Origin: Saccharothrix australiensis
GTDB taxonomy: Bacteria; Actinomycetota; Actinomycetes; Mycobacteriales; Pseudonocardiaceae
DNA length: 64,000 bases
Assembly: GCF_003634935.1 (NCBI RefSeq)
Contig: NZ_RBXO01000001.1
Coordinates: 2,257,501-2,321,500, forward strand
Direction: 5' to 3'
Positions 23,517 to 43,168 of this stretch are shown here, piece after piece (position 1 is the first letter of the stretch; each line of letters starts with the position of its first letter). Under the pieces are notes generated by a model. The model was not told the origin of the DNA. It ran no database searches and saw nothing but the letters and a program-made list of their open reading frames with translations. The position numbers and the translations under genes are program-made.

Positions 23517-23757
23517 CACAGCTCCTCGAGTCGTCGGGGGCACCGGTCCGCACCGGCGGCCGCACGGTCGCACCGATGGGTCCATCCCGTCACACTCGCG
23601 GGCCTCCGGCAACAGTGCCCAACGTCCCGGACACCGCGACGGGGGCCTGCTCCGCCCGGAGTGCCCCGAAGGTCCCGGGGCGAAGTGCCGGTGGCCGCAG
23701 GCGGGGGTGTTCCCGACAATCGGGTGGATGTCCACGGGGGTCCCGAATCGAGGTCCC

Positions 23758-25128: not shown

Positions 25129-28023
25129 CGGGGCCCAGCGGACACCGCCCAGCTCGACCAGCACCGCACCGTCGTCGTCGCACACCAGGACGTCCGCGGG
25201 GCCGCCCTGCGGGGTGCCGGTCACCAGTCCCCACATCGAGGAGGTCCAGCGGCCGACGACGGTGGTCCGCTCGACGGTGAGCACGGCGTCGGCCGCGTGG
25301 CGACCGGTCGCCGCCCCCAGCACCCCGTCCAACAGGTCCGGGGGGAACCCGAAGTCCACCTCGCCGGGTGCCGGGCCGGTCAACCGCAGCAGCACGGAGT
25401 TCCCGTGCCGCTCCGCGACGCGCACACCGGGGGACCGCGGGTCGGCGGCTGGTCCGCGTGGTCGCGCCGCGCCGCCACCGGTGCGCTGCACCCGGTGGCG
25501 CAACAGGGCGGGGAGATCGCCGGCCTCGCGCCGCCGCGACACGCGCGCGGTCCCCTCCGCCAGGCGGGCCCGTGCCGCCGGCCGATCGGCTCCGGGCGCT
25601 TCGGTGATGTGGAACCGCCAGCGGCCGGGCGGTCCCGCCACCCCGGCGGCCTCCAGCGCCGAGCCGTGCCGGAACGCCGGGTCGAGGACCACGCTCAGGT
25701 CCTCGACGGTGGCCGGGGCCGAGCCGCACAGGCGGTGGGCCACCGCCGCCGCCAGTTCGACCAGCCCTCCCGCCGTCGGAGCACCGGAGGTGCCCCGGTC
25801 CCCGGCGCCTCCACGGGGGGTGGCGGTGGTGCGCCACCGCACCCCGCGTTCCTCGGTGGCGTGGTCGGGCAGCAGCGGGTGGGCACGTTCGGCTGGTGCG
25901 CCCGTGGTCGGCGCCCAGTACCGCCGCCGGCGCCAGGGATAGGGCGGAAGGCTCACCTGCCGGCCGGCGGGCAGGATCCGCTCCCACCGCAGGGCGTGCC
26001 CGGCTTCGTAGAGGTCCGCCGCGGCGGCCACGAGGGACTCCCACACCGAGCCGGCACACCCGGCGGCGGGCGGGTCGCCCAGGAAGACCCCGGCCGGGGT
26101 GAGGTGCAGCACGAGGTCGTCGGACGCGGCGGCTCCCGGCGCGTCGACCCTGGTGACCGGGGGGAGCCGCGGTTCGGCCGCTCGGTCCGCGTCGACACCG
26201 TCGCCGGGCCGGCGCGCCGCCACGCTGCCGGGCGGGGTCGTCAGCCGCACGCCCCAGTCGCGCCACAGGGCGATCAGCCCCGCCGGCAGCGGCCTCGACG
26301 CGAGGTCCGGGGCGGTGGGGTGGAGCGGGCCGGCTGCTCGTCGCGGCGATGCCGCGCACTCCCGGACGGCGTCGCGGAACGCGTTGCTGCGTCGGGACAA
26401 CTCCTCCACCACCGCGTGGTCGGTCGGCTCATCGCGGAGGACGAGCACCACACCCGGCGGGCTGCCCACCGGGGTGGCGCGCAGCGGCCGGGGTTCCCGC
26501 CGCAGGGCCTCCACCATGCCCGCGCGGTCGTGGGCCCGGAACGCGCGCCGGTAGGGGTGGTGCGCCCGGCGGACCGCCGCGGTGTGGCAGACGTCGGCGA
26601 GCGGCACCTCGGGCGAGGTCTCCAGGAACTCGGCGTGGGCCGCGGCGGCGGCGTCGAGGCTGTCCGGGTGCCGCGCCGAGAGCACCAGTGCGAAAGGACC
26701 CACGTCCGGTGCGCCACCCGGCACCGGGTGGTCGGCGGAACCCAGCACGGCGTGGACGTTGGTGCCGGTGACGCTGAAGGAGTTGACACCGGCGACCAGG
26801 CCGTCCCGGTCGGGCAGGGGCGTCGACCTCGTCACCACCGAGCAGCGCGACCCGTCCCACCGCAGCGCCGGCGTCGGCGTGGTGTGGTGCAGCGTCGCGG
26901 GGAGCAGCCGGTGGTGGAGCGCCAAGGCGGCCTTGAGCAGTCCGGTGAGCCCCGCGACCGGCTCCTGGTGGCCGAAGTTGCCCCGGACCGAGCTGAGCAG
27001 GACCGGGCGGCCCGGCGGCCGTCCGGGACCGAGCACCGACGCCAGCGCGGCGATCTCCACCGGGTCCCCGGCCGGGGTGCCGACACCGTGGGTCTCGACG
27101 AACGACACCCTGGCGGGCTCGACACCCGCGTCCCGGTAGGCCAGGCGCAGGACTTCCTCCTGCGTGGCCGCCGCCGGGGCGAGCATCGTCGGGCTCGCGC
27201 GGCCGTCGTTCGTGACGGCGCTGCCGAGCACGACCGCGTACACCCGGTCACCGTCCCGCCGCGCGGCGGACAGCGGCTTCAGCACGACGACCGCGCACCC
27301 CTCGCCCCGCACGAACCCGTCCGCCCCGGCGTCGGCGAACGCGCTGCGCCCCTTGGCGGACAGCACGCCGGCCCGGCCGTAGGCGATGGTCTCCTCCGGG
27401 GACAGGACGAGGTGGACCGCTCCCGCCACCGCCAGTCGGCATTCGCCGTCGCGCAGGCTCCGGCACGCCAGGTGCACGGCGGCCAACCCGCCCGAGCAGT
27501 TGGTGTCGACGGTCATGCTCGGGCCGCGCAGGTCGAACTGGAAGGACACCTGCCCGCTCAGGCCGGCGCTGCCGGCGGCCCCGATCACCGAGAACATGTC
27601 CAGCAGACCGTCCCGCGCCAGCAGGTGCCAGTAGTGCGACGCGGCCTTCGCCATGAACACGCCCGTCCGGCGCGTCGCCGTGCCGCCGGTGACGACACCG
27701 GCGTCCTCGAAAGCCTCCCACGTCGTCTCCAGCACCAACCGCTGCTGGGGGTCCATGTGCGCGGCCTGCCGGCGGCCGATGCCGAAGAAGTCGGCGTCGA
27801 ACGACGAGACGTCCTCGATCGACGCCATGCGCGGGGCGGGTCGGTGCCGGCTGCCCTCGTCGGTGCCGGCGAGCGCTCGGAGGCCGTACCGGTCCGCGCC
27901 GATCGGGCCCACGACGTCGACCCCGTCGCACAGGGCCCGCCAGAGGGCCAGGGGTCCCCGGACGCGCGGGAAGCGGCACCCCGCGCCGACCACGGCGATC
28001 GGCTCGTCGTTCCCACGCGTCAT
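25102..28023 (-). CDS. unusual PKS: KS, decayed AT, partial DH
   Basis: 973 residues. The KS (1 to about 430) has Cys in DTNCSGGLAAVHLA (near 174), His in ETHGVGTP (near 313) and His in GNFGHQEPVAG (near 350); all three catalytic residues are there, but DTNCSGG, ETHGVGTP and GNFGHQ are unusual versions of DTACSSS, EAHGTGT and SNIGHT. The following KS-AT linker is normal, but the AT is cut to about 200 residues without GQGxQ or GHSxG. A post-AT linker (SLPPYPWRRRRYW) leads to a double-hotdog DH that keeps the C-half aspartate (PPDLLDGVL) but lacks the N-half HxxxGxxxxP. No ACP, KR or TE. It diverges from a full acyl-CoA carboxylase set. An ACP must be supplied in trans, or the KS works on acyl-CoA. 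Confidence 0.8.
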   Translation of the reverse strand: MTRGNDEPIAVVGAGCRFPRVRGPLALWRALCDGVDVVGPIGADRYGLRALAGTDEGSRHRPAPRMASIEDVSSFDADFFGIGRRQAAHMDPQQRLVLETTWEAFEDAGVVTGGTATRRTGVFMAKAASHYWHLLARDGLLDMFSVIGAAGSAGLSGQVSFQFDLRGPSMTVDTNCSGGLAAVHLACRSLRDGECRLAVAGAVHLVLSPEETIAYGRAGVLSAKGRSAFADAGADGFVRGEGCAVVVLKPLSAARRDGDRVYAVVLGSAVTNDGRASPTMLAPAAATQEEVLRLAYRDAGVEPARVSFVETHGVGTPAGDPVEIAALASVLGPGRPPGRPVLLSSVRGNFGHQEPVAGLTGLLKAALALHHRLLPATLHHTTPTPALRWDGSRCSVVTRSTPLPDRDGLVAGVNSFSVTGTNVHAVLGSADHPVPGGAPDVGPFALVLSARHPDSLDAAAAAHAEFLETSPEVPLADVCHTAAVRRAHHPYRRAFRAHDRAGMVEALRREPRPLRATPVGSPPGVVLVLRDEPTDHAVVEELSRRSNAFRDAVRECAASPRRAAGPLHPTAPDLASRPLPAGLIALWRDWGVRLTTPPGSVAARRPGDGVDADRAAEPRLPPVTRVDAPGAAASDDLVLHLTPAGVFLGDPPAAGCAGSVWESLVAAAADLYEAGHALRWERILPAGRQVSLPPYPWRRRRYWAPTTGAPAERAHPLLPDHATEERGVRWRTTATPRGGAGDRGTSGAPTAGGLVELAAAVAHRLCGSAPATVEDLSVVLDPAFRHGSALEAAGVAGPPGRWRFHITEAPGADRPAARARLAEGTARVSRRREAGDLPALLRHRVQRTGGGAARPRGPAADPRSPGVRVAERHGNSVLLRLTGPAPGEVDFGFPPDLLDGVLGAATGRHAADAVLTVERTTVVGRWTSSMWGLVTGTPQGGPADVLVCDDDGAVLVELGGVRWAPSPLRACTP

Positions 28024-28187
28024 GGCCGGCCCTCGCCTCGATCGAGTCAGGACATCGTCCGCGCGACCCGGCGGACGCCGCCAGTGCCGTACGTCCCGGG
28101 ACCTTCGTCTCGGAGGCACGGGCGGCACCGACCGGGGACCATGGGGCCGGCCCTGACCGGTCGCGTCCTCGGCGGGAGGTGGAGCAC
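28024..28187. other. divergent control region of PKS and ACC operons
   Basis: 164 bp between the PKS ATG (minus) and the carboxyltransferase start (plus). It must hold both promoters. I did not see a convincing -35/-10 pair or a palindrome. Confidence 0.5.
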
Positions 28188-29900
28188 GTGGTCGAAGACC
28201 TGCTCGCCAGGGTCGGGGCGACCGCGAACCGGTGGCGCCGCTGCGCCGGGTGCCGCAGGTGGTGGCCGCGTCGCGCACTCCCGCCCGCGTGGACCTGCCC
28301 GGCGTGCGCGGCACCGTTCCGGATGCCGGCCGCGGACCGGATCGCCTCCCTCGTGGACCCGGGCACCTTCCGCGAGTTCGGAGCGACGCTGACGCCGGGC
28401 GACCCGCTCGGTTTCCGCGACCGCGCACCGTACCCCCAGCGCTGCGCCCGGGCCCGCGCGCGGACCGGCCTGCGGGAGTCGGCGGTGTCCGGCACCGCCG
28501 ACATCGCGGGCCGTCGGGTCGTCGTGGTCGTGTTCGACTTCGACTTCCTCGGGGGGTCCTTGGGGGTGGTGGCGGGTGAGAAGCTCGCCAGGGCCGCGGA
28601 AATCGCGTCACGCGAGCACGTGCCGCTGGTGACCGTGTCGGCTTCGGGCGGCGGGCGCATGCAGGAGGGCCCTTTCGCCCTGTTCCAGGGAGCCAAGACC
28701 GCGGCGGCGATCAGCGCTCTCCGGGACGCGGGCATCCCCTACATCAGCGTGCTCACCGACCCGGTGATCGGCGGTGTCCAGGTGTCCTTCGCCAGCGCCG
28801 GTGACGTCGTGGTGGCGGAGGAGGGCACCCGGGCGGGCTTCGCCGGCCGCCGGGTGGTCGAGCAGACCACCGGGCGCGCCCTGCCCGCCGACTTCCAGAC
28901 CGACGCCTTCCTGCTGCGGCACGGGCACGTGGACATGGTTGCGCCGCGCCGGGAACTGCCGGGGTGCGTGGCCCGCCTGGTGGCGTACGCGGTGCCGGCA
29001 CGGCGCGCGCAGGGCCGGGAGACCGGCGATCCGGTGCACCGCGCGGCGGCGCGCACACCACAGGACGACGCCGACCCCTGGGACGCGGTCGTCGCGGTGC
29101 GGGCGGCGCACCGCCCGCGACTGGCGCACTACCTGGCGGCGGTCTTCACCGACGCGGTCGAGCTGCACGGCGACCGCAGGCGCGGCGACGACGCGACCGT
29201 CTTCACCGGGTTCGCGCGGCTGGACGGGTACCCGGTGGTCGTCATCGGGCACAACAGGATCACCGAGGGCCCATCGCGCAACAGCGGGATGGCGAGCCCG
29301 GCCGGCTACCGCAAGGCGGCGCGCGTGATGCGCCTGGCGGCGCGGTGGTCCATCCCCGTGGTGACGCTCGTCGACACGCCCGGCGCGCACCCCGAGGCCG
29401 ACGCCGAGGCCGACAACCAGTCCGCCGCCATCGCCGAGACCATGCTCACCGCCGCGCGCCTGCCCACTCCCGTGCTGTGCGTCGTCATCGGCGAAGGCGG
29501 TAGCGGCGGCGCCCTGGCGTTGTCCATCGGTGACCGGCTGCTCATGCAGCACAACGCCACGTTCTCCATCATCAGCCCCGAGGGGTGCGCGGCGATCCTG
29601 TTCGCCGACAGCGCCAAGGCGCCGGAAGCCGCTCGCGCGCTGCACCTGCGCGCCACCGACCTGCACCGGCACGGGCTGGTCGACGACGTCGTGCGGGAGC
29701 CGCCCGGCGGCGCGCACGCCGACCCGCCGCGCGCGGCGGACCTGCTGGCCGACGCCCTGCGCAGGCACCTGGCCGAACTCCGGGGGCTGGACGGCCGGCG
29801 GCTCGTGGCGCGCCGGAGCCGCCGGCTGCGGGCCCTGGGCGGCGACTGGTGCCTGCCCGGCGCCACCACCCTCCTACCGGACGAGGACGACCGTGGATGA
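28188..29900 (+). CDS. acyl-CoA carboxylase, fused beta-alpha carboxyltransferase
   Basis: 570 residues from a GTG with GGGAGG 8 bp upstream; a GTG 9 bp earlier is too near that site. The first part is AccD-like with a four-cysteine zinc ribbon (CAGC near 23-26 and CPAC near 41-44), then the crotonase-type core SASGGGRMQEG; the second half is AccA-like, with GEGGSGGALALS and ISPEGCAAIL. Bacteria such as E. coli have these as separate subunits; the fusion is normal in some actinobacteria. It transfers CO2 from biotin to acetyl- or another acyl-CoA, giving malonyl-type extender units. Its last 8 bp overlap the biotin carrier gene. Confidence 0.88.
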   Translation: MVEDLLARVGATANRWRRCAGCRRWWPRRALPPAWTCPACAAPFRMPAADRIASLVDPGTFREFGATLTPGDPLGFRDRAPYPQRCARARARTGLRESAVSGTADIAGRRVVVVVFDFDFLGGSLGVVAGEKLARAAEIASREHVPLVTVSASGGGRMQEGPFALFQGAKTAAAISALRDAGIPYISVLTDPVIGGVQVSFASAGDVVVAEEGTRAGFAGRRVVEQTTGRALPADFQTDAFLLRHGHVDMVAPRRELPGCVARLVAYAVPARRAQGRETGDPVHRAAARTPQDDADPWDAVVAVRAAHRPRLAHYLAAVFTDAVELHGDRRRGDDATVFTGFARLDGYPVVVIGHNRITEGPSRNSGMASPAGYRKAARVMRLAARWSIPVVTLVDTPGAHPEADAEADNQSAAIAETMLTAARLPTPVLCVVIGEGGSGGALALSIGDRLLMQHNATFSIISPEGCAAILFADSAKAPEAARALHLRATDLHRHGLVDDVVREPPGGAHADPPRAADLLADALRRHLAELRGLDGRRLVARRSRRLRALGGDWCLPGATTLLPDEDDRG

Positions 29901-30419
29901 CCGACTCGCGAACGGGCCGAGCACACCGCACGACGACGCCTCGGCGGCCGTCGAAGCCGTCCGGAGGGTGCTGGCACTGCTCGGGGCCGCCCGGGCGGGA
30001 CAGGTCCGGGTCCGCAACGGCCGGTTCGAGCTCGACGTCACGCTGCACCCCGGTTCGGCGGGTGTCCACGGCGACGTCGAACCCGCCGAACCCGGACCCT
30101 CCGAACCACAACCCTCCGAACCCCGACCCGCCGGCGCGGGCCCGGCCGAGGTCCGGATCACCGCGCCCGCGATCGGCGTCTTCCACCGGCGGTCCGCGCC
30201 CGGTGAACCGCCGCTGGTGCAGGTCGGTGACCAGGTCGAGGCCGGGCGCGAACTCGGCCTGATCGAGGCGATGAAGGCGTTCATCCCCGTCGTGGCGGAC
30301 CGGCCGGGCACGGTCGGCGCGATCCACGTCGAGGATGCCGAAGTGGTCGAGTACGGGCAGGTCCTGATCGACCTGGTGCCCGACCCGGTCGGCGTACCGG
30401 AGCCCCGGGTGGGTGCCCC

Positions 30420-30423
<4 letters not shown>
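29893..30423 (+). CDS. biotin carboxyl carrier protein
   Basis: 176 residues. A helical N-terminal part and a Pro/Glu-rich linker (repeats of EPGPSEPQPSEP type) lead to a C-terminal biotinyl domain in which the biotin lysine is in IEAMKAF, after VQVGDQVEAGRELGLI. The GTG start at 29893 overlaps the carboxyltransferase gene by 8 bp, and its own stop overlaps the biotin carboxylase start (GTGA at 30420). It is the swinging arm of the carboxylase encoded around it. Confidence 0.9.
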
Positions 30424-31789
<1,366 letters not shown>

Positions 31790-31790
<1 letters not shown>

Positions 31791-33319
31791 TGGCCGCGCC
31801 CGACACCACGGCGCCGCAGGGACGGGTCCACACCGCTCACATCGCAGGCCGCGACCTCGTCCTCCAGCAGGTCGTCCAACCCGTCGTGGCCTCCCTCTCG
31901 GCGGACCGGTCCGTCCACCGACCGCCGATCCTCGGCCGTTGCGCCCTCGCCGGCCCGGACGAGGTGCGCGCCGCCACCGCCGCGGCCGTGGCGGCGGCAC
32001 CGCTGTGGGCCGACGTGCCACCGGCGGACAGGTTCGCGCTGGGGCCGGTCTTCTGCCGGCGGTTGGCGGACGCGGCCGGGGAGTTCACGGCCCTGCTCGT
32101 GGCCGAGGGCTGCCCGCGGCGCATCGCCGACTGGCTCCTCGACAGCATGTCGGGGATGTTCGACGCCGAGTCGTGCCGCTGGTACCTCGGCCTGGTGCGG
32201 CGCGAGTGGCGTGACGGCGACCGGCGGTTGGTGCTCCAGCACCACCCCGACGGGGTGCTCGCGATCAACCCGCCCGGCAACGCGGCCGCGTTCAGCGCCG
32301 CGACCGCGGCACTGCACGGGCTCATGGCAGGCAACGCCGTCGTCGTCCGCGTGCCCCGGCGCTTCCCGTCGAGCACGACGTTCCTGCTGCGCCACGTGCT
32401 CGTGCCGTGCCTGGAGGAGGCGCACGCGCCACCCGGAACGCTGAACTTCTTCTGCAGCGCACCGGATTCCGTGCTGCGGCACTGGCTCGACGACCCCGGC
32501 GTCGACGACATCCTGTACTACGGCAACAGCGAGCGCGGTCTGGGCTTCCAGCGCGCGTGCTCGGACCGGGGGAAGAAGGCCGTCCTCGAACTGTCGGGCA
32601 ACGACACGGTGGTCGTGTGGAAGGACGCCTCGATCCCCGGCGCGGTGGAGTCCCTGGTGGCGGCTTTCCACGGATCCGGTCAGATGTGCATCGCCCCGAA
32701 CCGCGCCGTGATCCACCCCTCGGTGGCCGACGACCTCATCGCGGCGCTGCGCGTGCGGGTCGCCGGGATCAGGCCCGGCAGGCCGGAGGACGACACGACG
32801 CTGCTCACCCCCGTGCCCGGTGACGCGCACGTCGCCGTGCTGCGGGAAGCACTGGCCGCCGGGGCGGTCCTGGTGTGCGGTGGCAGGCGGCTGACCCTCG
32901 CCGGCACACCGCACCCCGCCGGGCCGTTCCTGGAGCCCACCCTGCTCCGGGTCGACGGCCTGGGCACCGCGGCCGGCCTGAGCGCGGTCCGCGAGGAGAC
33001 GTTCTTCCCCCTGCTGACGCTGGTCGTACCGCACCCGGAGGCCGACGACGGACGCCTGCTCTCGGACGTGATCGGCTTCCTCAACCGCAACCGCTACGGC
33101 CTCCGCAACTCCCTGTGGACCGGTGATCCCGCTGTAGCCGAGCGGTTCGTGGCCGGTGTGCGCAACGGCGCCATGCTCAAGGTGAACCAACCGCACCTCG
33201 ACTTCGTCCACCTGCTGCCCAGCCACGGGGGGACGGGGCGGTCGGGTGGCGTCCACGGTGAAGCGACCTACGTGTTCCTCAAGACCAGCCACCTCCAGTC
33301 GGCGGTTCTGGGCCCGTGA
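31790..33319 (+). CDS. aldehyde dehydrogenase-type acyl reductase
   Basis: 509 residues of the aldehyde dehydrogenase superfamily. The nucleophile is in GSGQMCIAPNR (near 300), with the general-base region ELSGND (near 266) and the cofactor strand AINPPGNAAAFSAATAALHG. The sequence is divergent, somewhat toward the LuxC/acyl-CoA-reductase side, with PPGTLNFFCSAPDSV in place of the usual NxGPG-type loop. Translationally coupled (TGATG) to biotin carboxylase. It could reduce an acyl-CoA or acyl-ACP to aldehyde, or oxidise an aldehyde. It ends 11 bp from the convergent fabG. Confidence 0.75.
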
Positions 33320-34893: not shown

Positions 34894-35634
34894 ATGGCGT
34901 CCGATAGGCGTCACCACTTCCGTGGTGACGAGTTCGCCGGGACGCGCGTGCGTGCCCTGTGCGCGGGCGACCGGCGGGCGGGACGACCGGTGGTGGTGTT
35001 CGTGCCGGCTCTTGGTGTCACAGAGGACTTGGTGAACCTCGCGAGCGAGTGCGGGACGTGGACGCGGTCGGTGCTGCTCGACGTGCTCGGGTCGGTCGGT
35101 CGTGTCGACCTGCCCGCGTTCGCGACCGCTGTGGCGCAGTGGTTGGAGGTCGCGGTGGACGCGCCCGTCGTGCTGGCGGGGCACTCCACGGGGGCGCAAG
35201 TCGCCCTGCGCGCCGCCGTCCAGGTGCCGGCAGCGGTGCGGGTGCTGGTCCTGATGTCGCCGACGTTCCCGCCTCGGCTGCGACGGGTCCCGGCCCTGGT
35301 GCGCGCGAACTTCCGCAACGCGGCGCACGAGCCGCTCGACGTGTGGAGGGCCGTCCTGCCGGGGTGCGCGAGGGTCGGGGCGGTGACGTTGTGCCGGCTC
35401 CTGCGGTCGGCGCAGCACGACCGCCCGGAGGAGATCGTCACCGACGTGCGGTGCCCGGTGCTGGTCGTGCGGGGGGAGCACGACGCGTTCTGCCCGGAGC
35501 CCTGGGCCAGCAGGCTGGGCGCCGCCGCTCGACGAGGTCGGTGCGTGAACGTCCTCGGAGCACACGGTTTCCCGCACCAGTACGACAAGAACACCAGTGC
35601 GCTCATCGCCGACTTCGCCGGCAGGAGCGGCTGA
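34894..35634 (+). CDS. alpha/beta hydrolase
   Basis: 246 residues from the ATG at 34894; a longer open frame upstream runs into the LuxR promoter. The nucleophile elbow is AGHSTGAQ, the acid is in VRGEHDAFCP, and the histidine in GAHGFPHQY. No signal peptide. Cytosolic esterase/thioesterase-like enzyme; in this region a release or editing role is possible. It faces away from LuxR and is followed by a hairpin at 35698-35724. Confidence 0.78.
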   Translation: MASDRRHHFRGDEFAGTRVRALCAGDRRAGRPVVVFVPALGVTEDLVNLASECGTWTRSVLLDVLGSVGRVDLPAFATAVAQWLEVAVDAPVVLAGHSTGAQVALRAAVQVPAAVRVLVLMSPTFPPRLRRVPALVRANFRNAAHEPLDVWRAVLPGCARVGAVTLCRLLRSAQHDRPEEIVTDVRCPVLVVRGEHDAFCPEPWASRLGAAARRGRCVNVLGAHGFPHQYDKNTSALIADFAGRSG

Positions 35635-35809: not shown

Positions 35810-36682
35810 ATGAGACCACCGCGAACCCGGCCCGAGCTGGACGGTGTTCCCGAAACAGCCCTCTGGACGCTGTACATGCGCGCGTGGGAAGCACGTCGGC
35901 CCGACCGCCTGCTCGACGACCCGAAGGCCGTCGAGCTGGTCGACGCCCTCGACTACCCTTTTCAGGAGCGATTCGGCCCGGACAAGTGGGACTCGACCGT
36001 GGGCGAAGCGATCCGGACGCGGGTTTTCGACGACGAGGTCCGCCGGTTCCTCCGCGACCACCCGGACGGGACCGTCGTCGTTCTCGCCGAGGGGTTGGAG
36101 ACGCAGTTCTGGCGCGTGGACAACGGACGCGCCCGGTGGGTCAGCGTGGACCTGGCGGAGGTGGTGGGACTGCGGCGGCGCCTGCTGCCGGAATCGACGC
36201 GGCAGCGGCTCATCGCCTGCTCGGCGCTGGACGAGCGCTGGATGGACGAGGTGGACCGCACCCGCGGAGTGCTGATCACCGCCAAGGGACTGCTCCAGTA
36301 CTTCCGACCGACGGAGGTGCACCGACTCGTCGCCACGTGCGCGGAGCGGTTCCCCGGCGCCGCGATGGTCTTCGAGGCCCCGGCCCGCTGGCTCAGCGCC
36401 CTCATGGCCCGAGGGCGTACACGCACCCCCGCCGGGGTCCCGGTCCCTCCCGCGTACTGGGGGATGGACCCGAAGGAGGCCCGCAGGCTGCGGGCGGCCC
36501 ACCCGGGGATCGTCGAGCTGGTGGACCTGCCCCTCCCCGCCGGCCGGGGGAGGATCTACGGCCGACGACTGCCGTGGATGGCACGTACACCCGTGGTGAG
36601 GAACTGGAAACCGGTCTGGATCATGCGCCTGCGCTTCGGCGACGGGTCCGGGACGGACCCGGCGCGAAACCCTTCCGGGTGA
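35810..36682 (+). CDS. LCM-family SAM methyltransferase
   Basis: 290 residues of the leucine-carboxyl-methyltransferase/TcmP-like family (PPM1 type): an opening with ALWTLYMRAWEARRPD, the SAM loop VVLAEGLETQFWR (E-G-L-x-T in place of G-G-x-G-T-R of relatives), WVSVDLAEV for the ribose acid, and ITAKGLLQYF. Preceded by GAGGAG. Members O-methylate carboxylates or phenols. It is 79 bp upstream of the borosin precursor on the same strand, so C-terminal or side-chain O-methylation of the peptide is possible but unproved. Confidence 0.78.
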   Translation: MRPPRTRPELDGVPETALWTLYMRAWEARRPDRLLDDPKAVELVDALDYPFQERFGPDKWDSTVGEAIRTRVFDDEVRRFLRDHPDGTVVVLAEGLETQFWRVDNGRARWVSVDLAEVVGLRRRLLPESTRQRLIACSALDERWMDEVDRTRGVLITAKGLLQYFRPTEVHRLVATCAERFPGAAMVFEAPARWLSALMARGRTRTPAGVPVPPAYWGMDPKEARRLRAAHPGIVELVDLPLPAGRGRIYGRRLPWMARTPVVRNWKPVWIMRLRFGDGSGTDPARNPSG

Positions 36683-36761
36683 CGCGCGGTGCGGAACGAC
36701 ATCGACGTGCCTACCGTTGCCCATGAGCCGCACCCGGCTCCCGGACGAAAGGTGGTAGGCG

Positions 36762-37013
36762 ATGTCCGCCGCGCTCGCGACGTTCATGGAGGAGTTGGCC
36801 CTCGACCCGGTCAGGCGCCGCGCCTTCCAAGCCGACCGGCACGCCGTGCTCGCCGAGTCCGATCTCGACGACGAGCAGCGGGCGGTCCTCGCCGGCGGCG
36901 ACATCGGCGCCATCAACGCGCTGCTGTCGCAGGAACACCCCGATCCCGTCCAGCGCAGCACGCGGGGCGCCCTCGCCCTCGTCGTCCTCGTCGTCGCCAC
37001 CCCCGAGCAGTGA
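36762..37013 (+). CDS. split-borosin precursor peptide
   Basis: 83 residues, ATG with AGGTGG ahead. Residues 1 to about 58 form a helical, charged domain (FMEELALDPVRRRAFQAD and LDDEQRAVLAGGDIGAINAL) of the small LigA-like/borosin-binding type that split-borosin precursors use to dock on their methyltransferase. After a short EHPDPVQRSTR hinge the last residues are GALALVVLVVATPEQ: a run of Val/Leu/Ala ending in Pro, very like the Val-rich core of omphalotin-type borosins. Its stop overlaps the start of the N-methyltransferase (GTGA at 37010-37013). The Val/Leu run is the expected site of backbone N-methylation. Not a leader-cleavage-marked class; the protease is not visible here. Confidence 0.82.
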   Translation: MSAALATFMEELALDPVRRRAFQADRHAVLAESDLDDEQRAVLAGGDIGAINALLSQEHPDPVQRSTRGALALVVLVVATPEQ

Positions 37014-37861
37014 CACCGGCTCGCCGCGGAGGACCCGACACCGTCCTGACGCGACGGTCCGGGGCGGGCGACCCGGAGCGGGGCGAGCTGATCGTCGTGG
37101 GCACCGGGTACCAGGCCATCGGGGACCTCACCCTCCAGGCCGAAAGGGCGATCCGCGCCGCCGACACGGTGTTCACCGTCCTCGACAACCCGCTGTGCGC
37201 GGAATACCTCTCGCGCCTGAACCCGTCGGCGCGCTCCCTGACGGACTGCTACGCGCGCGGCAAGTCCAGGATGGACTCATACCAGGAGATGAGCGACCGC
37301 ATCCTGGCGGAGGTTCGCGAACAGCGCCTGGTGTGCGTGGCGTTCTACGGCCACCCCGGCGTCTTCGTCGCGCCCTCCCACATGGCCATCCGGCAAGCGC
37401 GCCGAGAGGGGTTCCCGGCGCGGATGCTGCCCGCCGCGTCCGCCGAGGACTGGCTGTTCGCCGACCTCGGCATCGATCCGGGGCCCGTCGGCTGCCAGAC
37501 CTTCGAGGCCACCGACTTCCTCGTCCACCAGCGGGTGTTCGACCCCACCAGCCTGCTCGTGCTGTGGCAGATCGGCGCCATCGGCATGAGCGACTGGTCT
37601 CCCGAGCACGACCCCGCGCCCGGCGCCCGACTCGTGGTGGACGTCCTCACCACCACCTACGGGGCCGCCTACGACGTCATCATCTACGAGGCCACCCCCT
37701 ACGCCGTCGCCGAACCCCGCATCGAACACGCACCCCTGGGTGAGGTCGCCGACAGCAAGCTGACCATGTGCTCCACCCTGGTCGTTCCCCCGCTCCCGCC
37801 TCGCCGCCCTGACCCCACGGTCGTCCAGCGCCTGCGCCGGCTGGACCAGAACCTCACCTGA
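37010..37861 (+). CDS. borosin peptide-backbone alpha-N-methyltransferase
   Basis: 283 residues of the tetrapyrrole-methylase-like fold, from a GTG overlapping the precursor stop. SAM-binding opening VGTGYQ (30-35); YGHPGVFV (113-120), RMLPAASAEDWLFADL (138-153), EATDFL and WQIGAIG follow the borosin methyltransferase OphMA closely. The catalytic Tyr-x5-Arg-x3-Tyr of OphMA (Y66, R72, Y76) is present with the same spacing as Y81, R87, Y91 in YARGKSRMDSY. In OphMA the substrate peptide is fused to the enzyme C-terminus; here the enzyme ends soon after RRLDQNLT and the peptide is a separate gene, that is a split borosin as in Shewanella SonM/SonA. It should methylate amide nitrogens of the core peptide iteratively. 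Confidence 0.88.
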   Translation: MTPARRGGPDTVLTRRSGAGDPERGELIVVGTGYQAIGDLTLQAERAIRAADTVFTVLDNPLCAEYLSRLNPSARSLTDCYARGKSRMDSYQEMSDRILAEVREQRLVCVAFYGHPGVFVAPSHMAIRQARREGFPARMLPAASAEDWLFADLGIDPGPVGCQTFEATDFLVHQRVFDPTSLLVLWQIGAIGMSDWSPEHDPAPGARLVVDVLTTTYGAAYDVIIYEATPYAVAEPRIEHAPLGEVADSKLTMCSTLVVPPLPPRRPDPTVVQRLRRLDQNLT

Positions 37862-37992: not shown

Positions 37993-38451
37993 CTACGTCG
38001 CTCCGCCCCTCGCGACAGCCTGGGCTTCCGCCTGGTCGACGAGGAAGTCCAGCAGCGACGGCCAGGTCCGGTGCACGGTCGTCGCTCCTTCCTTGTACCA
38101 GCTCAGCTCACCGGACGGCGCCAGCCAGTACAGCTCGTACCCCTGGTGCATGCCGACGACGACGGCACCTTCCGGCAGGAGGTCCGCCGCGTCGTTCTCG
38201 TCCAACAGCTCACGCCCGTCATCCGCCAGTCCCAGGACGGTCGGGTAGAAGAAGTCCGTGCCGCGAAGCAGGTCCCCCGCCTGACGACCGGCGGTGAGCA
38301 GGAACTCCTCGTACTGCGCGGGCAGCCACTCGACCCGCTGATCGGCGCGCACCTCCGCGACCTCCGCGGGCGTGCAGCCCCGGACCGTGTCCGCAGTGGC
38401 GATGCCGCTGTCGAGCAGGGTCGCGACGAATGACGACATGGTGTGGGGCAT
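37993..38451 (-). CDS. SUKH/SMI1-type immunity protein
   Basis: 152 residues. The pattern PAEVAEVRADQRVEWLPAQY, then FLLTAGRQAGDL and the late strand YELYWLAPSGELSWYKEG is typical of the SMI1/KNR4 (SUKH) superfamily, the most widespread immunity fold of polymorphic toxins and often paired with deaminase toxins. The ATG at 38451 is 15 bp after the stop of the RHS toxin gene. It should bind and block the deaminase tip of that toxin in the cytosol. Confidence 0.8.
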   Translation of the reverse strand: MPHTMSSFVATLLDSGIATADTVRGCTPAEVAEVRADQRVEWLPAQYEEFLLTAGRQAGDLLRGTDFFYPTVLGLADDGRELLDENDAADLLPEGAVVVGMHQGYELYWLAPSGELSWYKEGATTVHRTWPSLLDFLVDQAEAQAVARGGAT

Positions 38452-38465
38452 GGGTTTCCTCGTTC

Positions 38466-41400
38466 TCAGCGACCTAGATCGGAATAGGTCAGGTCGATGC
38501 CGGGGAAGGCTCTGCGGAAGTCGTCGATGACGACCTGGCAGGACGGGCACACCGGTCGCTCGGACGTGATGTGGATGCGGCCGGTGGCACCCGGCTGGAG
38601 TCGGCTGCCCAACTCCTCCAGGATCTTCCACTCGGAGTCGGAGTCGCGGGAGATGTTCGCCGGTCCTCGGCTGTACTGCGGTGACGTGGGCATCGGCGCG
38701 GAGTCGGGGTACTGGTGGCCGCCGCTGACGCCGATCCGCTCACCGCTCACCCCGTTGATCTCGTACTCGGCGACGGCGATGTTCCTCCGCCCACCGACGT
38801 TGTACCGCGACCGGAACTGGTCGATTTTATCCTTCGGGCACAACGCGAGGCCGAGAGGGTCGGCGCCGGTCGCCGGATCGGACGCGTAGGCGTGGGGGTC
38901 GGGTCCGGCCGCCGCGCCCATCGGGTCGGGGCTGAGGTAGCGCCCGATCCTCGGGTCGTAGTAGCGCTGGTTGTTGTAGTGCAGGCCGGACTCGGTGTCG
39001 TGGTACTGGCCGGGAAACCGCAGCGGGGTGTCAGCGGCGAACTCCAGGCGCCCGAGGGCCTCACCCCATCTCGTGGCCCGGCTCTGCCACACGACTGAGC
39101 CCAGTTCGTCCACAAGTTCGGTTGGCGTGCCGATCATGTCGGTGACGATGGAGTAGAAGCGCTGGTCCACCCATTCTTGCGTTTGCGGGGCGAGTCCCCG
39201 CTCGACTTGGGTGAGCGGCCGGAAGGTGCCGGGTTCCCAGTCCCACGTGGTCGCGCGGCCGTCGCCGATCTGCTCGGCCAGGAGCATGCCGTCCCACACG
39301 AACAGCAGCCGGGCGCTCACCTCGCCGGCGGCGTCGAGCCGCTCCTTGGCGATCCTCCGGCCGAGGGCGTCGTACCGGTAGCGCCATCGGACACCGTCCG
39401 GAGTGGTGAGCGTGACAAGGCGGTCCTCGCCGTCCCACGCGTAACGCCAGACGTCGGGCTTCGCAGACAGCCTCTTGCGGCGCGCTTGGACCACCCGGCC
39501 TTGGGCGTCGTGCTGGTACACGAGGCCACCCGCGCGCTGCTCCGGATCACCTTGAACCGCACCGGGATGGCTGCGTGTCGGGGCGACGCCGTCGTCGACG
39601 TATGCGCGCCGACCGTCCGCACGGTGGTGGAACCGGCGGTTCTGGACCGTCCGCCTGCCGACGGAGACGGTCTGCGCGGCGAGCCGGTGCGCGGGGTCCC
39701 ACGCCTGGGCCAGTGCGACACCGGTGTCCAGGAGTCGTTCGACCTCACGGCCGGAGGCGTCGAAGGTGAAGGAAAGGGTCCTGCCGCCGCTATGGAGACC
39801 CACATGCCTGCCGCGGGCGTCGTAAGACCAGTTGCTCACCGATCCGGTGGGCGTGGTCCTCGACGTGCGCCTGCCCGCCTGGTCGTACACCGACGTGACC
39901 GCCAGTCCGTTGACCGTCTCCCGCACCACGCGTCCGGCGGCGTCGCGTTCGAACCACACGTCGGCGTCCGCGTTGACCGCGCGAAGCAACCGGCCCAGCG
40001 GGTCGTAGGTGAACCTCGCCTCGGAGCCCGCCGACACGGCCGCTATCCGGTTGCCCATCGGGTCGTACTCGTAACGCGTCGGCTCGCCCGCGCCGTTGAT
40101 CCTCTCCACGAGTCGGCCGGCCGCGTCGTAGCCGTAGCGTTGTTCCCTGCCGGACGGGTCCACCTCGCGGACCAGCCGCCCGTTCGGGTCGTAGTCGAAG
40201 TGCCAGGCCGAGGCCGGGCCGTCCTCGATGTCGACCACACGGAGGTTGCGGTCGTAGTGGAACGTGGTCCGGACACCGTCCGGTCCGGTCCGCGTCGCCA
40301 CCATGTCGAAGTGCGTGGTCGTCGTGCGCGTGACCCGGCCGAGCACATCGATATGCTCGATCTCGTTGCCCTCGCCGTCGTAGCGCCACCGCTCAACCGC
40401 ACCGTCCGGCCGCGTGCGGCTCAGCAGCTTGCCCTCCACGGACCAGGTGAAGGCGCTCGTCGCGCCGCCGGGGTCCACCACGCGGGAGATCCGGCCGAAC
40501 TGGTCGCGGTCGTAACGCGTGACCCCGTCGTGTTCAGCCACGGCGACCGGCAGTCCGGCGGGGTTGGTCTCGATCCGGCGGACGGCTCCGGTCGGTGTGG
40601 TGACCGTAACGGGACGGCCCCGGTCGTCGTATTCGTAGAGGGTGATCGCACCGGCGGGGTCGATGGTCCTCGTGAGGTTGCCGCGGTCGTCGTGGTCGCG
40701 CCGCCACACGCCGCCGTCCGGTGCGACGACGACGGTCGCCTGCCCGAGGCCGTTGTACTCGGCCAGCGTGCGGGAGGAGTCGGGGTGGGTGACGACCACG
40801 ACGTTGTCGTTCTCGTCGTACTCGTACCGCGTCACGTTGCCCAGCGGGTCCGTGGTGGCGACGAGTCGGTCCTCGTCGTCCCACTCCTTTGTCCACGTGT
40901 TGCCGAGAGGGTCCAGTTCGGCGACCAGTCGGTTCCCGGCGGTGTACCGATAGGTGGTCACGTGGCCCAGCGCATCGGTGAACCGCGTGATGCCGGTGTC
41001 GTAGTCGAAGGAGCCGTCGAGCACCCCGCCCGAGCCCTCGTTGCGCACGCAGCGACCCTGCGAGTCGTACGAGTACCGGTACCACTCGCCCGTGCGGTCG
41101 GTCCACTGCGTCATCCGCCCGGAGGCGTCGTACTCGTACTCCATCGGCTGGCCCGAGGAGTTGACCACCGCCCTCAGGCGGCTATCGGAGTCGTAGTCGA
41201 ACCGCGCCAGGGTGATCGGAGGTCCGGCGGGGTCGTGCAGGCGCAGTTCGGTGATCCGGCCGGACGCCGACCCGACGTCCACGCGGTAACCGCCGCTGTG
41301 GCGCAGCACGAGCGGCACGCCGTCGGGGCCGCGCTCGATGTCGATCCGGTTGCCGTTCCGGTCGGTGATCGCGGTGAGTCGAGCTTCGCGACCGGCTTCG

Positions 41401-42863
41401 GAGAAGTGCAGGATCTCGGGCGTGCCGCGGCGGACCAGCGCGTAGCCGTCATCCGTGCGGTGCAGGGGCCAGCGCGGCCCCATCAGGGGCAACACATCAC
41501 CGGAGTGGGGCACTGCCGGGTAGATCAGCACCATGCCTTCATCGGCTACATACACGACGCCCAGATCGTCGAACTCCAGTCGCTGGTCCAGGGTCGCGGC
41601 CCAGTTCGGCCCGAAGCTCCTACCGGACCGGTAGGACGAGACATGGGTGCGGCGTAGCAGCAGCGGCAGCACACCGGCCAGGTCGACATCGGTCTCGCCC
41701 GCCACCACGTCGCCGGTGACCACGTCCACCGGGTCGTTGCACAGGTTGCGCGAGCCTTCAGGTGTCTTGGTCTTGTTCGGGTCGGTTGGCCGGCTCGTGC
41801 TGCCGGGAGAGGTCGAGTCCGGTGACTTGGGCTTGGGGGACGGCGTTGTGCCTGAGGCATCCGGCGTGGCGGTGCCGGACGGCGCGGTGCTGCCCGATGG
41901 GGTGGTGCTGCCCGAGGGCGAGGTCGTGCCCGATGGTGAGGTGGTGCCCGATGGTGATGTGGTGCCGGAGGGTGATGTGGTGCTGGAGGGGGAGGTCGTG
42001 CCGGATGGGTTGCTGGTGCTGGATGGGTTGGTGCCGTCTGCGCCTTTGACGGTGGGTGTGTCGGCCCTGGGTGTGCTGGCGGGGGTGGTGGTGTCGGGGC
42101 TGGCGGGTCCGTCGGTCTTGCGGCCGAGGGTGCTCAGCTTGTCCGTGATCTCGCCGAGTTTGTCCAGGACTTTGCGGATGCGGGGGGTGACGTTGGCGAT
42201 GGTTTTGACGAGTTTGCGGACCAGGTCGGCGATGCGGTTGCAGACCTTGGTGATGGTGGAGACGGCCTGGGCGATGATCAACGGCGTGGCCAGGCCGAGG
42301 GTGGCGATGGCTTCCAGGGCCCAGGTGATGAGTTTGCCGACGACCTCGGCGACGAGGTCGCGGATGATCTCGCGGACGGCGGCGACGACTTCGCCCATGA
42401 CCATCACGCCGGTGCCGACGCCTTCGGCCAGCGTGCCGGCGCCGGTGAGGGCGTCGGCGGTCTGGGCGGCGTGTGCGCGGTAGGTGTCGGCGGCGGTGCC
42501 CTGCCAGCCGGTGGCGTGCTGGTGTCCGAGGTCCTGGGCGATGGTGCGGACTTCGGTGGCGACGGTGGTCCAGGTTTCGCTGAACGAGCGGATGACGGGT
42601 GGGTCGCCGGCGAACCAGTCCAGGGCCTGCTTCAGGGGTTGGACGTGTTCGATGAGCCAGGACACGCCGTAGGAGGCGACGGTGCCGACGGGGTCGAGCA
42701 CCATCGACAGCACTTCCAGTCCGACTCCGACCCCGCCGAGTCCGGCTTCGACCCAGCTGCCGTCGGAGATGCCCTGGGCCAGGTCGTTGGCCGACTCGGC
42801 GATACCGATCCCGGTCACCGCCGACGTGTCGTCCTTCGGCGCGGCCACCAGCGGGTTGGTCAC
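38466..42863 (-). CDS. RHS toxin with deaminase tip (T7SS type)
   Basis: 1465 residues. The N-terminal part is a WXG100-like helical export domain (GWQGTAADTYR near 118) with hydrophobic helices to about 240; then a Thr/Ser/Pro linker with PSGTTS repeats (about 275-340); a DUF6531 opening (CNDPVDVVTGDVVAGETDVD); many YD/RHS repeats; and the RHS core end RYYDPRIGRYLSPDPMG near 1311. The variable tip (about 1335-1465) has SDSEWKILEEL and ERPVCPSCQVVIDDFRRAFP: a DxE motif (near 1409) and CxxC (near 1441), the zinc-site set of BURPS668_1122-like nucleic-acid/nucleotide deaminase toxins, where Asp replaces the usual His/Cys. GTG start coupled by GTGA to the EspC-like gene. SUKH immunity gene follows. 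Confidence 0.85.
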   Translation of the reverse strand: MTNPLVAAPKDDTSAVTGIGIAESANDLAQGISDGSWVEAGLGGVGVGLEVLSMVLDPVGTVASYGVSWLIEHVQPLKQALDWFAGDPPVIRSFSETWTTVATEVRTIAQDLGHQHATGWQGTAADTYRAHAAQTADALTGAGTLAEGVGTGVMVMGEVVAAVREIIRDLVAEVVGKLITWALEAIATLGLATPLIIAQAVSTITKVCNRIADLVRKLVKTIANVTPRIRKVLDKLGEITDKLSTLGRKTDGPASPDTTTPASTPRADTPTVKGADGTNPSSTSNPSGTTSPSSTTSPSGTTSPSGTTSPSGTTSPSGSTTPSGSTAPSGTATPDASGTTPSPKPKSPDSTSPGSTSRPTDPNKTKTPEGSRNLCNDPVDVVTGDVVAGETDVDLAGVLPLLLRRTHVSSYRSGRSFGPNWAATLDQRLEFDDLGVVYVADEGMVLIYPAVPHSGDVLPLMGPRWPLHRTDDGYALVRRGTPEILHFSEAGREARLTAITDRNGNRIDIERGPDGVPLVLRHSGGYRVDVGSASGRITELRLHDPAGPPITLARFDYDSDSRLRAVVNSSGQPMEYEYDASGRMTQWTDRTGEWYRYSYDSQGRCVRNEGSGGVLDGSFDYDTGITRFTDALGHVTTYRYTAGNRLVAELDPLGNTWTKEWDDEDRLVATTDPLGNVTRYEYDENDNVVVVTHPDSSRTLAEYNGLGQATVVVAPDGGVWRRDHDDRGNLTRTIDPAGAITLYEYDDRGRPVTVTTPTGAVRRIETNPAGLPVAVAEHDGVTRYDRDQFGRISRVVDPGGATSAFTWSVEGKLLSRTRPDGAVERWRYDGEGNEIEHIDVLGRVTRTTTTHFDMVATRTGPDGVRTTFHYDRNLRVVDIEDGPASAWHFDYDPNGRLVREVDPSGREQRYGYDAAGRLVERINGAGEPTRYEYDPMGNRIAAVSAGSEARFTYDPLGRLLRAVNADADVWFERDAAGRVVRETVNGLAVTSVYDQAGRRTSRTTPTGSVSNWSYDARGRHVGLHSGGRTLSFTFDASGREVERLLDTGVALAQAWDPAHRLAAQTVSVGRRTVQNRRFHHRADGRRAYVDDGVAPTRSHPGAVQGDPEQRAGGLVYQHDAQGRVVQARRKRLSAKPDVWRYAWDGEDRLVTLTTPDGVRWRYRYDALGRRIAKERLDAAGEVSARLLFVWDGMLLAEQIGDGRATTWDWEPGTFRPLTQVERGLAPQTQEWVDQRFYSIVTDMIGTPTELVDELGSVVWQSRATRWGEALGRLEFAADTPLRFPGQYHDTESGLHYNNQRYYDPRIGRYLSPDPMGAAAGPDPHAYASDPATGADPLGLALCPKDKIDQFRSRYNVGGRRNIAVAEYEINGVSGERIGVSGGHQYPDSAPMPTSPQYSRGPANISRDSDSEWKILEELGSRLQPGATGRIHITSERPVCPSCQVVIDDFRRAFPGIDLTYSDLGR
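41873..42040. repeat. 18-bp tandem repeats in the RHS gene
   Basis: About nine degenerate 18-bp units of the type CCCGATGGTGAGGTGGTG (plus-strand reading) encode the PSGTTS hexapeptide repeats of the RHS linker. Copy number is likely to vary between strains. Confidence 0.75.
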
Positions 42864-43168
42864 CGGTTCATCCCGTCGAAGCGCGCGGACTCACCGGATT
42901 CCCGCGTGTCGTAGTCGCGCGAGGTCTCCCGCAACTTGGCGGCGTTGTCCGACACGGTCTCCGCCGCCTTGGTCAGCGCCTGCACGCCCATGTCCTCGAA
43001 GGGTTGGAGCAGCATGGCGAACGGCTGGCAGACCACGCCGTAGGCGGAGTCGTTCATCGTCACCGTCCGCGCCGCGTCCGCCGCCGCGCGCAACCGGTCC
43101 GCCAAGCCCTCCACCCGACCGGCCAGCGCGCCGATCTCACCGGTAACGACCTCGTACCCGCCGGTCAT
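42860..43168 (-). CDS. EspC-like ESX-secretion-associated protein
   Basis: 102 residues, helical hairpin. It resembles the DUF2580/EspC group of type VII-associated small proteins: VTGEIGALAGRVEGLADRLR as first helix, a central VCQPFAMLLQPF turn and a second helix. EspC-like proteins are often encoded just before WXG-headed toxins and act as export partners. Its TGA overlaps the GTG of the RHS gene (GTGA), and it follows the YbaB-like gene by 4 bp. Confidence 0.75.
   Translation of the reverse strand: MTGGYEVVTGEIGALAGRVEGLADRLRAAADAARTVTMNDSAYGVVCQPFAMLLQPFEDMGVQALTKAAETVSDNAAKLRETSRDYDTRESGESARFDGMNR

What the first reader, a model, noticed from the sequence alone, without database searches (positions are those of the whole stretch)
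36762..37861. Split borosin RiPP pair: hydrophobic-core precursor plus backbone N-methyltransferase
Seen: an 83-codon gene ending in GALALVVLVVATPEQ, whose stop overlaps (GTGA) the start of a methyltransferase with YGHPGVFV, ASAEDW and a Tyr-x5-Arg-x3-Tyr (Y81, R87, Y91) spaced as in OphMA. Known: borosin methyltransferases methylate amide nitrogens of Val/Leu/Ile-rich cores; split types have a separate precursor with a helical docking domain. Inferred: residues about 66-83 are the substrate, giving a multiply N-methylated peptide. Few actinomycete borosins have been described to my knowledge, so the product may be new.
Basis: partly seen in the sequence, partly recalled or inferred. Interest (0 to 1): 0.88.

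Follow-up and report, generated by a model that had tools for sequence, protein, structure and literature searches.

The report
Split borosin gene pair, actinomycete
Two overlapping genes encode a small peptide with a greasy tail and an enzyme expected to methylate that tail's backbone; this is a real but not unprecedented member of the split borosins, a family already shown to work in a Streptomyces.

Summary
Window 36762-37013 encodes an 83-aa peptide whose stop overlaps by 4 nt the GTG start of a 283-aa methyltransferase, 37010-37861. The enzyme's nearest solved relatives are SonM (E 5.5e-53) and OphMA, both borosin enzymes. Y81, R87 and Y91 are invariant in 21 of 21 aligned relatives and spaced as in OphMA. 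The peptide is predicted as five helices plus a disordered tail; the 50 PDB matches listed, of 78 weak ones, are borosin chains. A profile of six other actinobacterial precursors finds this ORF alone as significant in the genome (E 1.7e-13). The enzyme lies in a supported clade of seven (100/98) with Streptomyces sp. NRRL S-118, from which a split borosin pair was confirmed by LC-MS/MS in 2021 (PMC8429565). So the reading is right, but the kind is known: a new member of the class with docking domain and core on one protein and the methyltransferase separate. A leucine-carboxyl-methyltransferase-like gene beside it recurs in one of eight related loci, a lead on tailoring. No methylation was measured.

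The parts
36762..37013 (+). Split borosin precursor, 83 aa: predicted borosin-binding (docking) domain about residues 3-56, linker about 57-68, hydrophobic core about 69-79 (GALALVVLVVA), tail TPEQ
   Evidence: relatives just upstream of the enzyme in six of six other actinobacterial genome-contig loci; five helices H3-14, H16-24, H26-31, H37-45, H48-56 then low confidence 59-83; 50 of 50 Foldseek rows listed (of 78) are borosin chains
36930..37010 (+). Linker and C-terminal core region of the precursor (residues 57-83)
   Evidence: Predicted disordered; a clear hydrophobic stretch at the like place in four of six other actinobacterial precursors, weaker in two
37010..37861 (+). Borosin alpha-N-methyltransferase, 283 aa, GTG start; conserved part begins about residue 25
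   Evidence: PF00590 E 3.8e-17; SonM E 5.5e-53; AlphaFold2 model, mean pLDDT 87.9, Foldseek best 7ltc_A E 5.2e-32; Y81/R87/Y91 invariant in 21 of 21
35810..36682 (+). Leucine-carboxyl-methyltransferase-like (PF04072) protein, 79 nt upstream of the precursor, same strand: possible tailoring enzyme
   Evidence: TIGR00027 only under its cut-off (53.6 against 93.55 bits); 77% identical gene directly downstream of the borosin pair in Streptomyces beigongshangae; not found beside seven other clade loci
34894..35634 (+). Alpha/beta hydrolase, 175 nt upstream of the LCM-like gene; membership of the cluster uncertain
   Evidence: PF12697 (on the longer reading from 34786); no counterpart in the other borosin loci examined

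Best explanation
The pair is a split borosin of the kind in which docking domain and core sit on the precursor and the methyltransferase is a separate protein (type IV of PMC8429565; 'Class 3' of PMC11395268). Mechanism, by analogy with SonM/SonA: the five-helix N-terminal domain of the precursor docks on the enzyme; the flexible C-terminal tail enters the active site; Y81, R87 and Y91 hold the peptide backbone; S-adenosylmethionine methylates backbone amide nitrogens of the A/L/V run, one after another from the N- to the C-terminal side. An unidentified protease then frees the core, and the neighbouring LCM-like methyltransferase may tailor it. Shown here by computation: homology, predicted fold, invariant residues, linkage, clade. 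Inferred: docking, methylation, sites and number of methyl groups, proteolysis, tailoring.
For: Nearest PDB sequences are SonM and OphMA and nearest folds likewise. Y/R/Y spacing as OphMA, invariant in 21 of 21. Precursor: predicted five helices then disorder; 50 of 50 Foldseek rows listed are borosin chains, at best 1.1 A over 53-54 residues to dbOphMA and OphMA and 1.7-1.8 A over 49-52 to SonA; left-out profile E 1.7e-13, the only significant hit in the genome. A precursor lies just upstream of the enzyme in six of six other actinobacterial genome-contig loci. Clade with NRRL S-118 100/98; a pair of that strain confirmed by heterologous expression and LC-MS/MS.
Against: No mass data and no model of the complex (the tool folds single chains). 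Foldseek E-values for the precursor are weak (best 0.015, none at or below 0.001), and the top-ranked rows superpose at 6-8 A because the floppy tail is drawn in. Its sequence match to OphMA is weak (E 0.09) and LigA in Pfam is under its cut-off. The precursor model rests on 7 sequences, mean pLDDT 76.5, pTM 0.60. Two of six actinobacterial relatives (L012, L033) have only weakly hydrophobic tails. The ends of the core are guessed.
Confidence: 0.93

Rival explanations
1. The enzyme is an ordinary tetrapyrrole-type methylase (corrin, porphyrin or YabN-like) and the small ORF beside it is incidental.
For: It belongs to PF00590, and weak NCBIfam matches go to YabN and cobalamin enzymes. The genome holds eight other PF00590 places at 73 bits or more and one partial one at 28 bits.
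Against: All six NCBIfam matches are far below cut-off (best 40.5 bits against 525). The PDB sequence hits at E up to 0.01 are borosin methyltransferases, 25 of 25. The precursor is conserved and linked.
Confidence: 0.02
2. A borosin pair by descent (so not exclusive of the best explanation), but the tail is not matured into a released product: the methylated precursor acts whole, or the locus is on its way out.
For: I saw no protease or exporter that clearly belongs to the locus. The gene is rare and patchy: of 24 other congeners only G005 has anything, a 46-aa fragment. PMC8429565 (2021) says no split borosin pathway was yet tied to a final product (passage).
Against: Both genes here are intact with gene-like codon-position GC, and the catalytic residues are invariant.
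Confidence: 0.25
3. The hydrophobic tail is a membrane anchor or a by-product of GTC/CTC-rich DNA rather than a methylation substrate.
For: The run is short and written in GC-rich triplets that also read as an acidic run on the other strand. Two of six actinobacterial relatives have weakly hydrophobic tails (STLSVSVETE, PAIVMRTELA).
Against: Four of six keep a clear hydrophobic stretch at the like place with other residues (AVLVVIIF, ALIVILGF, GLLILLAF, AHVIIIY), and one of those strains, NRRL S-118, has a proven pair.
Confidence: 0.04

Closest known systems
Split borosin pair of Streptomyces sp. NRRL S-118 (PMC8429565; L016 here)
   Same: Upstream precursor with docking domain and hydrophobic core, separate methyltransferase; also a 4-nt overlap if the GTG start of my gene caller is used (L016 5693-5944 and 5941-6765); same clade 100/98
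   Different: Enzyme 51-53% identical, precursor 29-35%; core AVLVVIIF against ALALVVLVV; no LCM-like gene in its 12.7-kb locus
SonM/SonA of Shewanella oneidensis (PDB 7LTC; PMC8429565)
   Same: Fold of the enzyme (39% identity, E 5.2e-32), five-helix docking domain, Y/R/Y set
   Different: SonM has 3 more residues between Tyr58 and Arg67; SonA receives two methyl groups (Leu63, Ile65)
OphMA/dbOphMA, fused fungal borosins
   Same: Y-x5-R-x3-Y spacing without gap; clasp region matches the precursor, at best 1.1 A over 53-54 residues; hydrophobic core
   Different: One fused polypeptide in fungi; two proteins here
Borosin loci of S. noursei, S. smyrnaeus, S. beigongshangae, Streptomyces sp. NBRC 110611 and a Pseudonocardiales MAG (L013, L033, L015, L014, L012)
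   Same: Same two-gene order
   Different: Cores differ; of these only S. beigongshangae has the LCM-like gene, and on the other side of the pair

Membership tests
Split borosin (type IV; Class 3 of PMC11395268) | Methyltransferase and precursor encoded separately | tested here: met
   Two ORFs in different frames overlapping by 4 nt
Split borosin (type IV; Class 3 of PMC11395268) | PF00590-type methyltransferase nearest to borosin enzymes | tested here: met
Split borosin (type IV; Class 3 of PMC11395268) | Active-site Tyr, Arg, Tyr (SonM Y58, R67, Y71) | tested here: met
   Y81, R87, Y91, invariant in 21 of 21 rows of A5; aligned to SonM and OphMA
Split borosin (type IV; Class 3 of PMC11395268) | Five-helix borosin-binding domain on the precursor | tested here: met
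   Predicted only: five helices; 50 of 50 Foldseek rows listed are borosin chains, but none at or below E 0.001
Split borosin (type IV; Class 3 of PMC11395268) | C-terminal hydrophobic core | tested here: met
   Only 1 of 214 ORFs of 50-150 aa in the window has such a run; like place in four of six relatives
Split borosin (type IV; Class 3 of PMC11395268) | Backbone alpha-N-methylation of the precursor | not testable with these tools
   Needs LC-MS/MS
Split borosin (type IV; Class 3 of PMC11395268) | Dimer of enzyme-precursor heterodimers | not testable with these tools
   Only single chains can be folded
Fused borosin (types I-III) | Methyltransferase, clasp and core in one polypeptide | tested here: not met
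   Separate frames
Canonical tetrapyrrole/YabN methylase | Score above a specific NCBIfam cut-off | tested here: not met
   Best 40.5 bits against 525

The most novel reading that the evidence does not exclude
The pair belongs to a small operon (LCM-like methyltransferase, precursor, backbone methyltransferase, perhaps the alpha/beta hydrolase) that makes a borosin both backbone-N-methylated and methylated by a second enzyme, for example as a C-terminal methyl ester: a doubly methylated, uncharged hydrophobic peptide.
Probability: 0.2. Interest if true: 0.5.

Novelty: new member of a known kind. Interest (0 to 1): 0.36.

Why it matters
Backbone N-methylation is known to make peptides stable and membrane-permeable, and ribosomal routes to it are few. 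This pair adds a distinct core (ALALVVLVV) and a compact enzyme of the actinobacterial clade, outside the Streptomyces branch of the tree, with a possible second methyltransferase. PMC8429565 stated in 2021 that no split borosin pathway was yet linked to a final product (passage seen), so an intact pair in a nearly complete genome is a useful test case. The kind itself is established.

Tried and rejected
Fused-borosin reading: rejected, separate frames. Tetrapyrrole methylase: rejected on NCBIfam scores and on PDB neighbours.

The alpha/beta hydrolase as a core part: not supported, it has no counterpart in the other borosin loci examined. The LCM-like gene as a fixed partner: only partly supported. 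Of eight other loci of the clade it lies beside the pair in one (L015) and was not found in seven (L012, L013, L014, L016, L033, held as about 12.7 kb each; L069, L070, with about 1.5 kb on each side). Its other relatives (L046-L056, L058-L062, about 1.5 kb on each side) show no borosin gene beside them.

Promoter and terminator scan found none. Rfam gave no match in the window. The dmxorosin paper (PMC11855644, outline and passages) is about a lanthipeptide, unrelated. Two borosin papers asked for by DOI (Imani 2022, and a DOI that I recalled for a later borosin paper) are not held, so the finer types V-X were not checked.

Alignment A3 held one wrong-strand row (L040); I dropped A3. A5 reads L040 on the right strand and leaves out nine other rows of A3 (L019, L023, L024, L026, L030, L032, L034, L036, L037), chosen by eye as same-group duplicates; so 21 of 21 is over 21 of the 30 enzymes aligned. 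Read by eye in A3, the nine omitted rows also carry the Tyr, Arg and Tyr. The E-values of the search for related loci are relative to candidates only.

Full report
What is there. Window 36762-37013 (+) is an ATG ORF of 83 codons; 37010-37861 (+) is a GTG ORF of 283 codons; they share GTGA. Their codon-position GC (0.81/0.45/0.95 and 0.71/0.50/0.92) is gene-like. A purine-rich stretch (GAAAGGTGGTAGGCG) precedes the ATG, which I read as a ribosome-binding site. The first 24 or so residues of the enzyme are not conserved, and its frame is open further upstream to a GTG at 36689; between the precursor's stop and the conserved part, GTG 37010 is the only ATG/GTG/TTG in that frame (sequence). The exact start is therefore likely, not proven.

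The enzyme. Pfam places it in PF00590 (63.4 bits, cut-off 27.8). The 25 distinct PDB sequences found at E up to 0.01 are SonM and fungal borosin methyltransferases. An AlphaFold2 model on 21 sequences (mean pLDDT 87.9) has SonM 7ltc_A as nearest solved fold (E 5.2e-32, TM 0.84 by query length, 39% identity), then OphMA; the 50 rows listed, of 222 at E up to 0.001, are borosin enzymes. Y81, R87 and Y91 align with SonM Y58, R67 and Y71, whose mutation lowers efficiency about 14-fold (Y58F) to about 100-fold (R67K, Y71F) or leaves only traces (R67A; passages of PMC8429565). The three are invariant in 21 of 21 rows of A5, a set of 21 of the 30 enzymes first aligned; in the 30-row alignment, which carries one wrong-strand row, they are 'nearly invariant'. 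The spacing x5, x3 equals OphMA.

The precursor. Against PDB sequences the 83-aa peptide matches OphMA residues about 320-374 only weakly (E 0.09), and LigA in Pfam under its cut-off (21.6 against 25.3 bits). Fold and family evidence is stronger. The model (mean pLDDT 76.5, pTM 0.60, 7 sequences) has five helices up to residue 56 and low confidence from 59 to 83, which is the plan described for SonA ('five-helix bundle'). Foldseek returned 78 matches at E up to 10, none at or below 0.001 (best 0.015). The 50 shown are all OphMA, dbOphMA or SonA chains. Where the alignment stops at the helices the fit is 1.1-1.2 A over 52-54 residues at 36-38% identity to dbOphMA and OphMA; where the tail is drawn in, as in the top rows, it is 6-8 A. 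A profile of six other actinobacterial precursors, the window's left out, finds this ORF at E 1.7e-13 in the window's own genome, with the next of 145 candidates at 0.45.

Relatives. The scan of genome contigs gave 27 loci from 42 pattern matches. Among these 27, 17 have a precursor-like ORF at E up to 0.01 with a profile that includes the window's own peptide and the six actinobacterial ones; several loci have little flanking DNA. In six of six actinobacterial loci (L012-L016, L033) it lies just upstream of the enzyme. In four of these six (L013-L016) the tail is clearly hydrophobic, in two (L012, L033) weakly. The tree of 21 enzymes puts the window with the Pseudonocardiales MAG (95/84) inside a clade of seven (100/98) that holds Streptomyces sp. 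NRRL S-118. PMC8429565 (section 6 read) reports that pairs of NRRL S-118 and S. oneidensis were expressed and confirmed by LC-MS/MS as alpha-N-methylating; that the L016 pair is the one tested is my inference from the strain name, the adjacency and the sizes.

Spread. Intact relatives are rare. In the window's genus, 0 of 24 other genomes have an intact one at E up to 1e-10; one (G005) has an 83%-identical 46-aa fragment. In the family, 8 of 390 genomes including the window's own match at E up to 1e-15: four at E below 1e-50 (own, G228, G277, G390), the fragment in G005, and three matches at 26-27% identity. In an even draw of the phylum, 1 of 396, the window's own, at E up to 1e-30. In the genus of S. 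beigongshangae, 8 of 392, that species included, at E up to 1e-40, of which four (G809, G811, G901, G1121) are 57-60% identical to the window enzyme. In some searches at most six candidates per genome were scored, so these are lower bounds. G228 holds a contig of the same length, with the same precursor, as the Pseudonocardiales MAG L012 and is 'same family' as the window's genome; so the window belongs to that MAG's family, probably Pseudonocardiaceae (inference). A more exact name is not claimed.

Neighbours. Directly upstream lies an LCM-like methyltransferase (35810-36682; PF04072 44.1 bits over a cut-off of 22.3), 79 nt from the precursor. In S. beigongshangae a 77%-identical gene follows the borosin enzyme. 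That exceeds the identity of the two borosin enzymes (about 56%) and of the next LCM relative found (54%, on another contig of the NBRC 110611 strain). So the genes occur together in two loci, in different orders, and not beside seven others. I take this as a lead, not a rule. The alpha/beta hydrolase before it has no such support. Upstream on the other strand are a LuxR-type regulator and a short-chain dehydrogenase, and beyond them acyl-CoA carboxylase, aldehyde dehydrogenase, ketosynthase and wax-ester-synthase-like genes that read as a separate lipid or polyketide pathway. Downstream, on the other strand, is an RHS polymorphic-toxin system.

Function. The best explanation is a split borosin that N-methylates backbone amides of about ALALVVLVV. 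The docking, the N-to-C direction, the number of methyl groups and the release step are taken from SonM/SonA and OphMA, not shown here.

Novelty. New member of a known kind. PMC11395268 (sections 3, 9 and 28 read) already lists the class in which docking domain and core are one protein and the methyltransferase another. A search for 'borosin' with 'Streptomyces' listed 13 papers, of which I read parts of three: PMC8429565 (passages and section 6), PMC11285071 (passages and section 12) and PMC11855644 (outline and passages). The listings show no paper on this pair, but the strain is unnamed to me, the library lacks most subscription papers, and the 2022 classification paper is not held.

Noticed in passing
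window 37993-43168 (-): RHS-repeat protein of 1465 aa with a C-terminal deaminase toxin domain (PF14424), an EspC-like small protein before it and a SUKH-type (SMI1/KNR4, just under cut-off) likely immunity protein after it: a polymorphic toxin system next to the borosin pair.
   Followed up: no
L041 1456-2819 (G390) and L072 from about 1354 (G1113): Borosin methyltransferase fused to a docking domain that ends without a hydrophobic core, followed by a short ORF without docking domain that shares the motif P[ND]LR[HY]AVMDxTR and has a hydrophobic (L041) or acidic-hydrophobic (L072) tail: looks like the known 'Class 2' layout, core in trans.
   Followed up: partly
L071, L075, L076 (G1187, contig 509): Three borosin-type methyltransferase domains in a row, two of them in one 621-aa frame, with a precursor-like ORF between the second and third.
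   Followed up: no
L010 1501-1638 (G005): An 83%-identical 46-aa fragment of the methyltransferase in a congener, with no other match to the enzyme in that genome: probably a remnant of a lost gene.
   Followed up: partly
window 22017-33319: GMC oxidoreductase, wax ester synthase/DGAT, ketosynthase protein, carboxyltransferase, biotin carrier, biotin carboxylase and aldehyde dehydrogenase: a lipid- or polyketide-like cluster.
   Followed up: no
L028 5950-7515: Gemmatimonadota MAG frame of 521 aa that reads as two borosin-type methyltransferase domains in tandem (translation printed).
   Followed up: no
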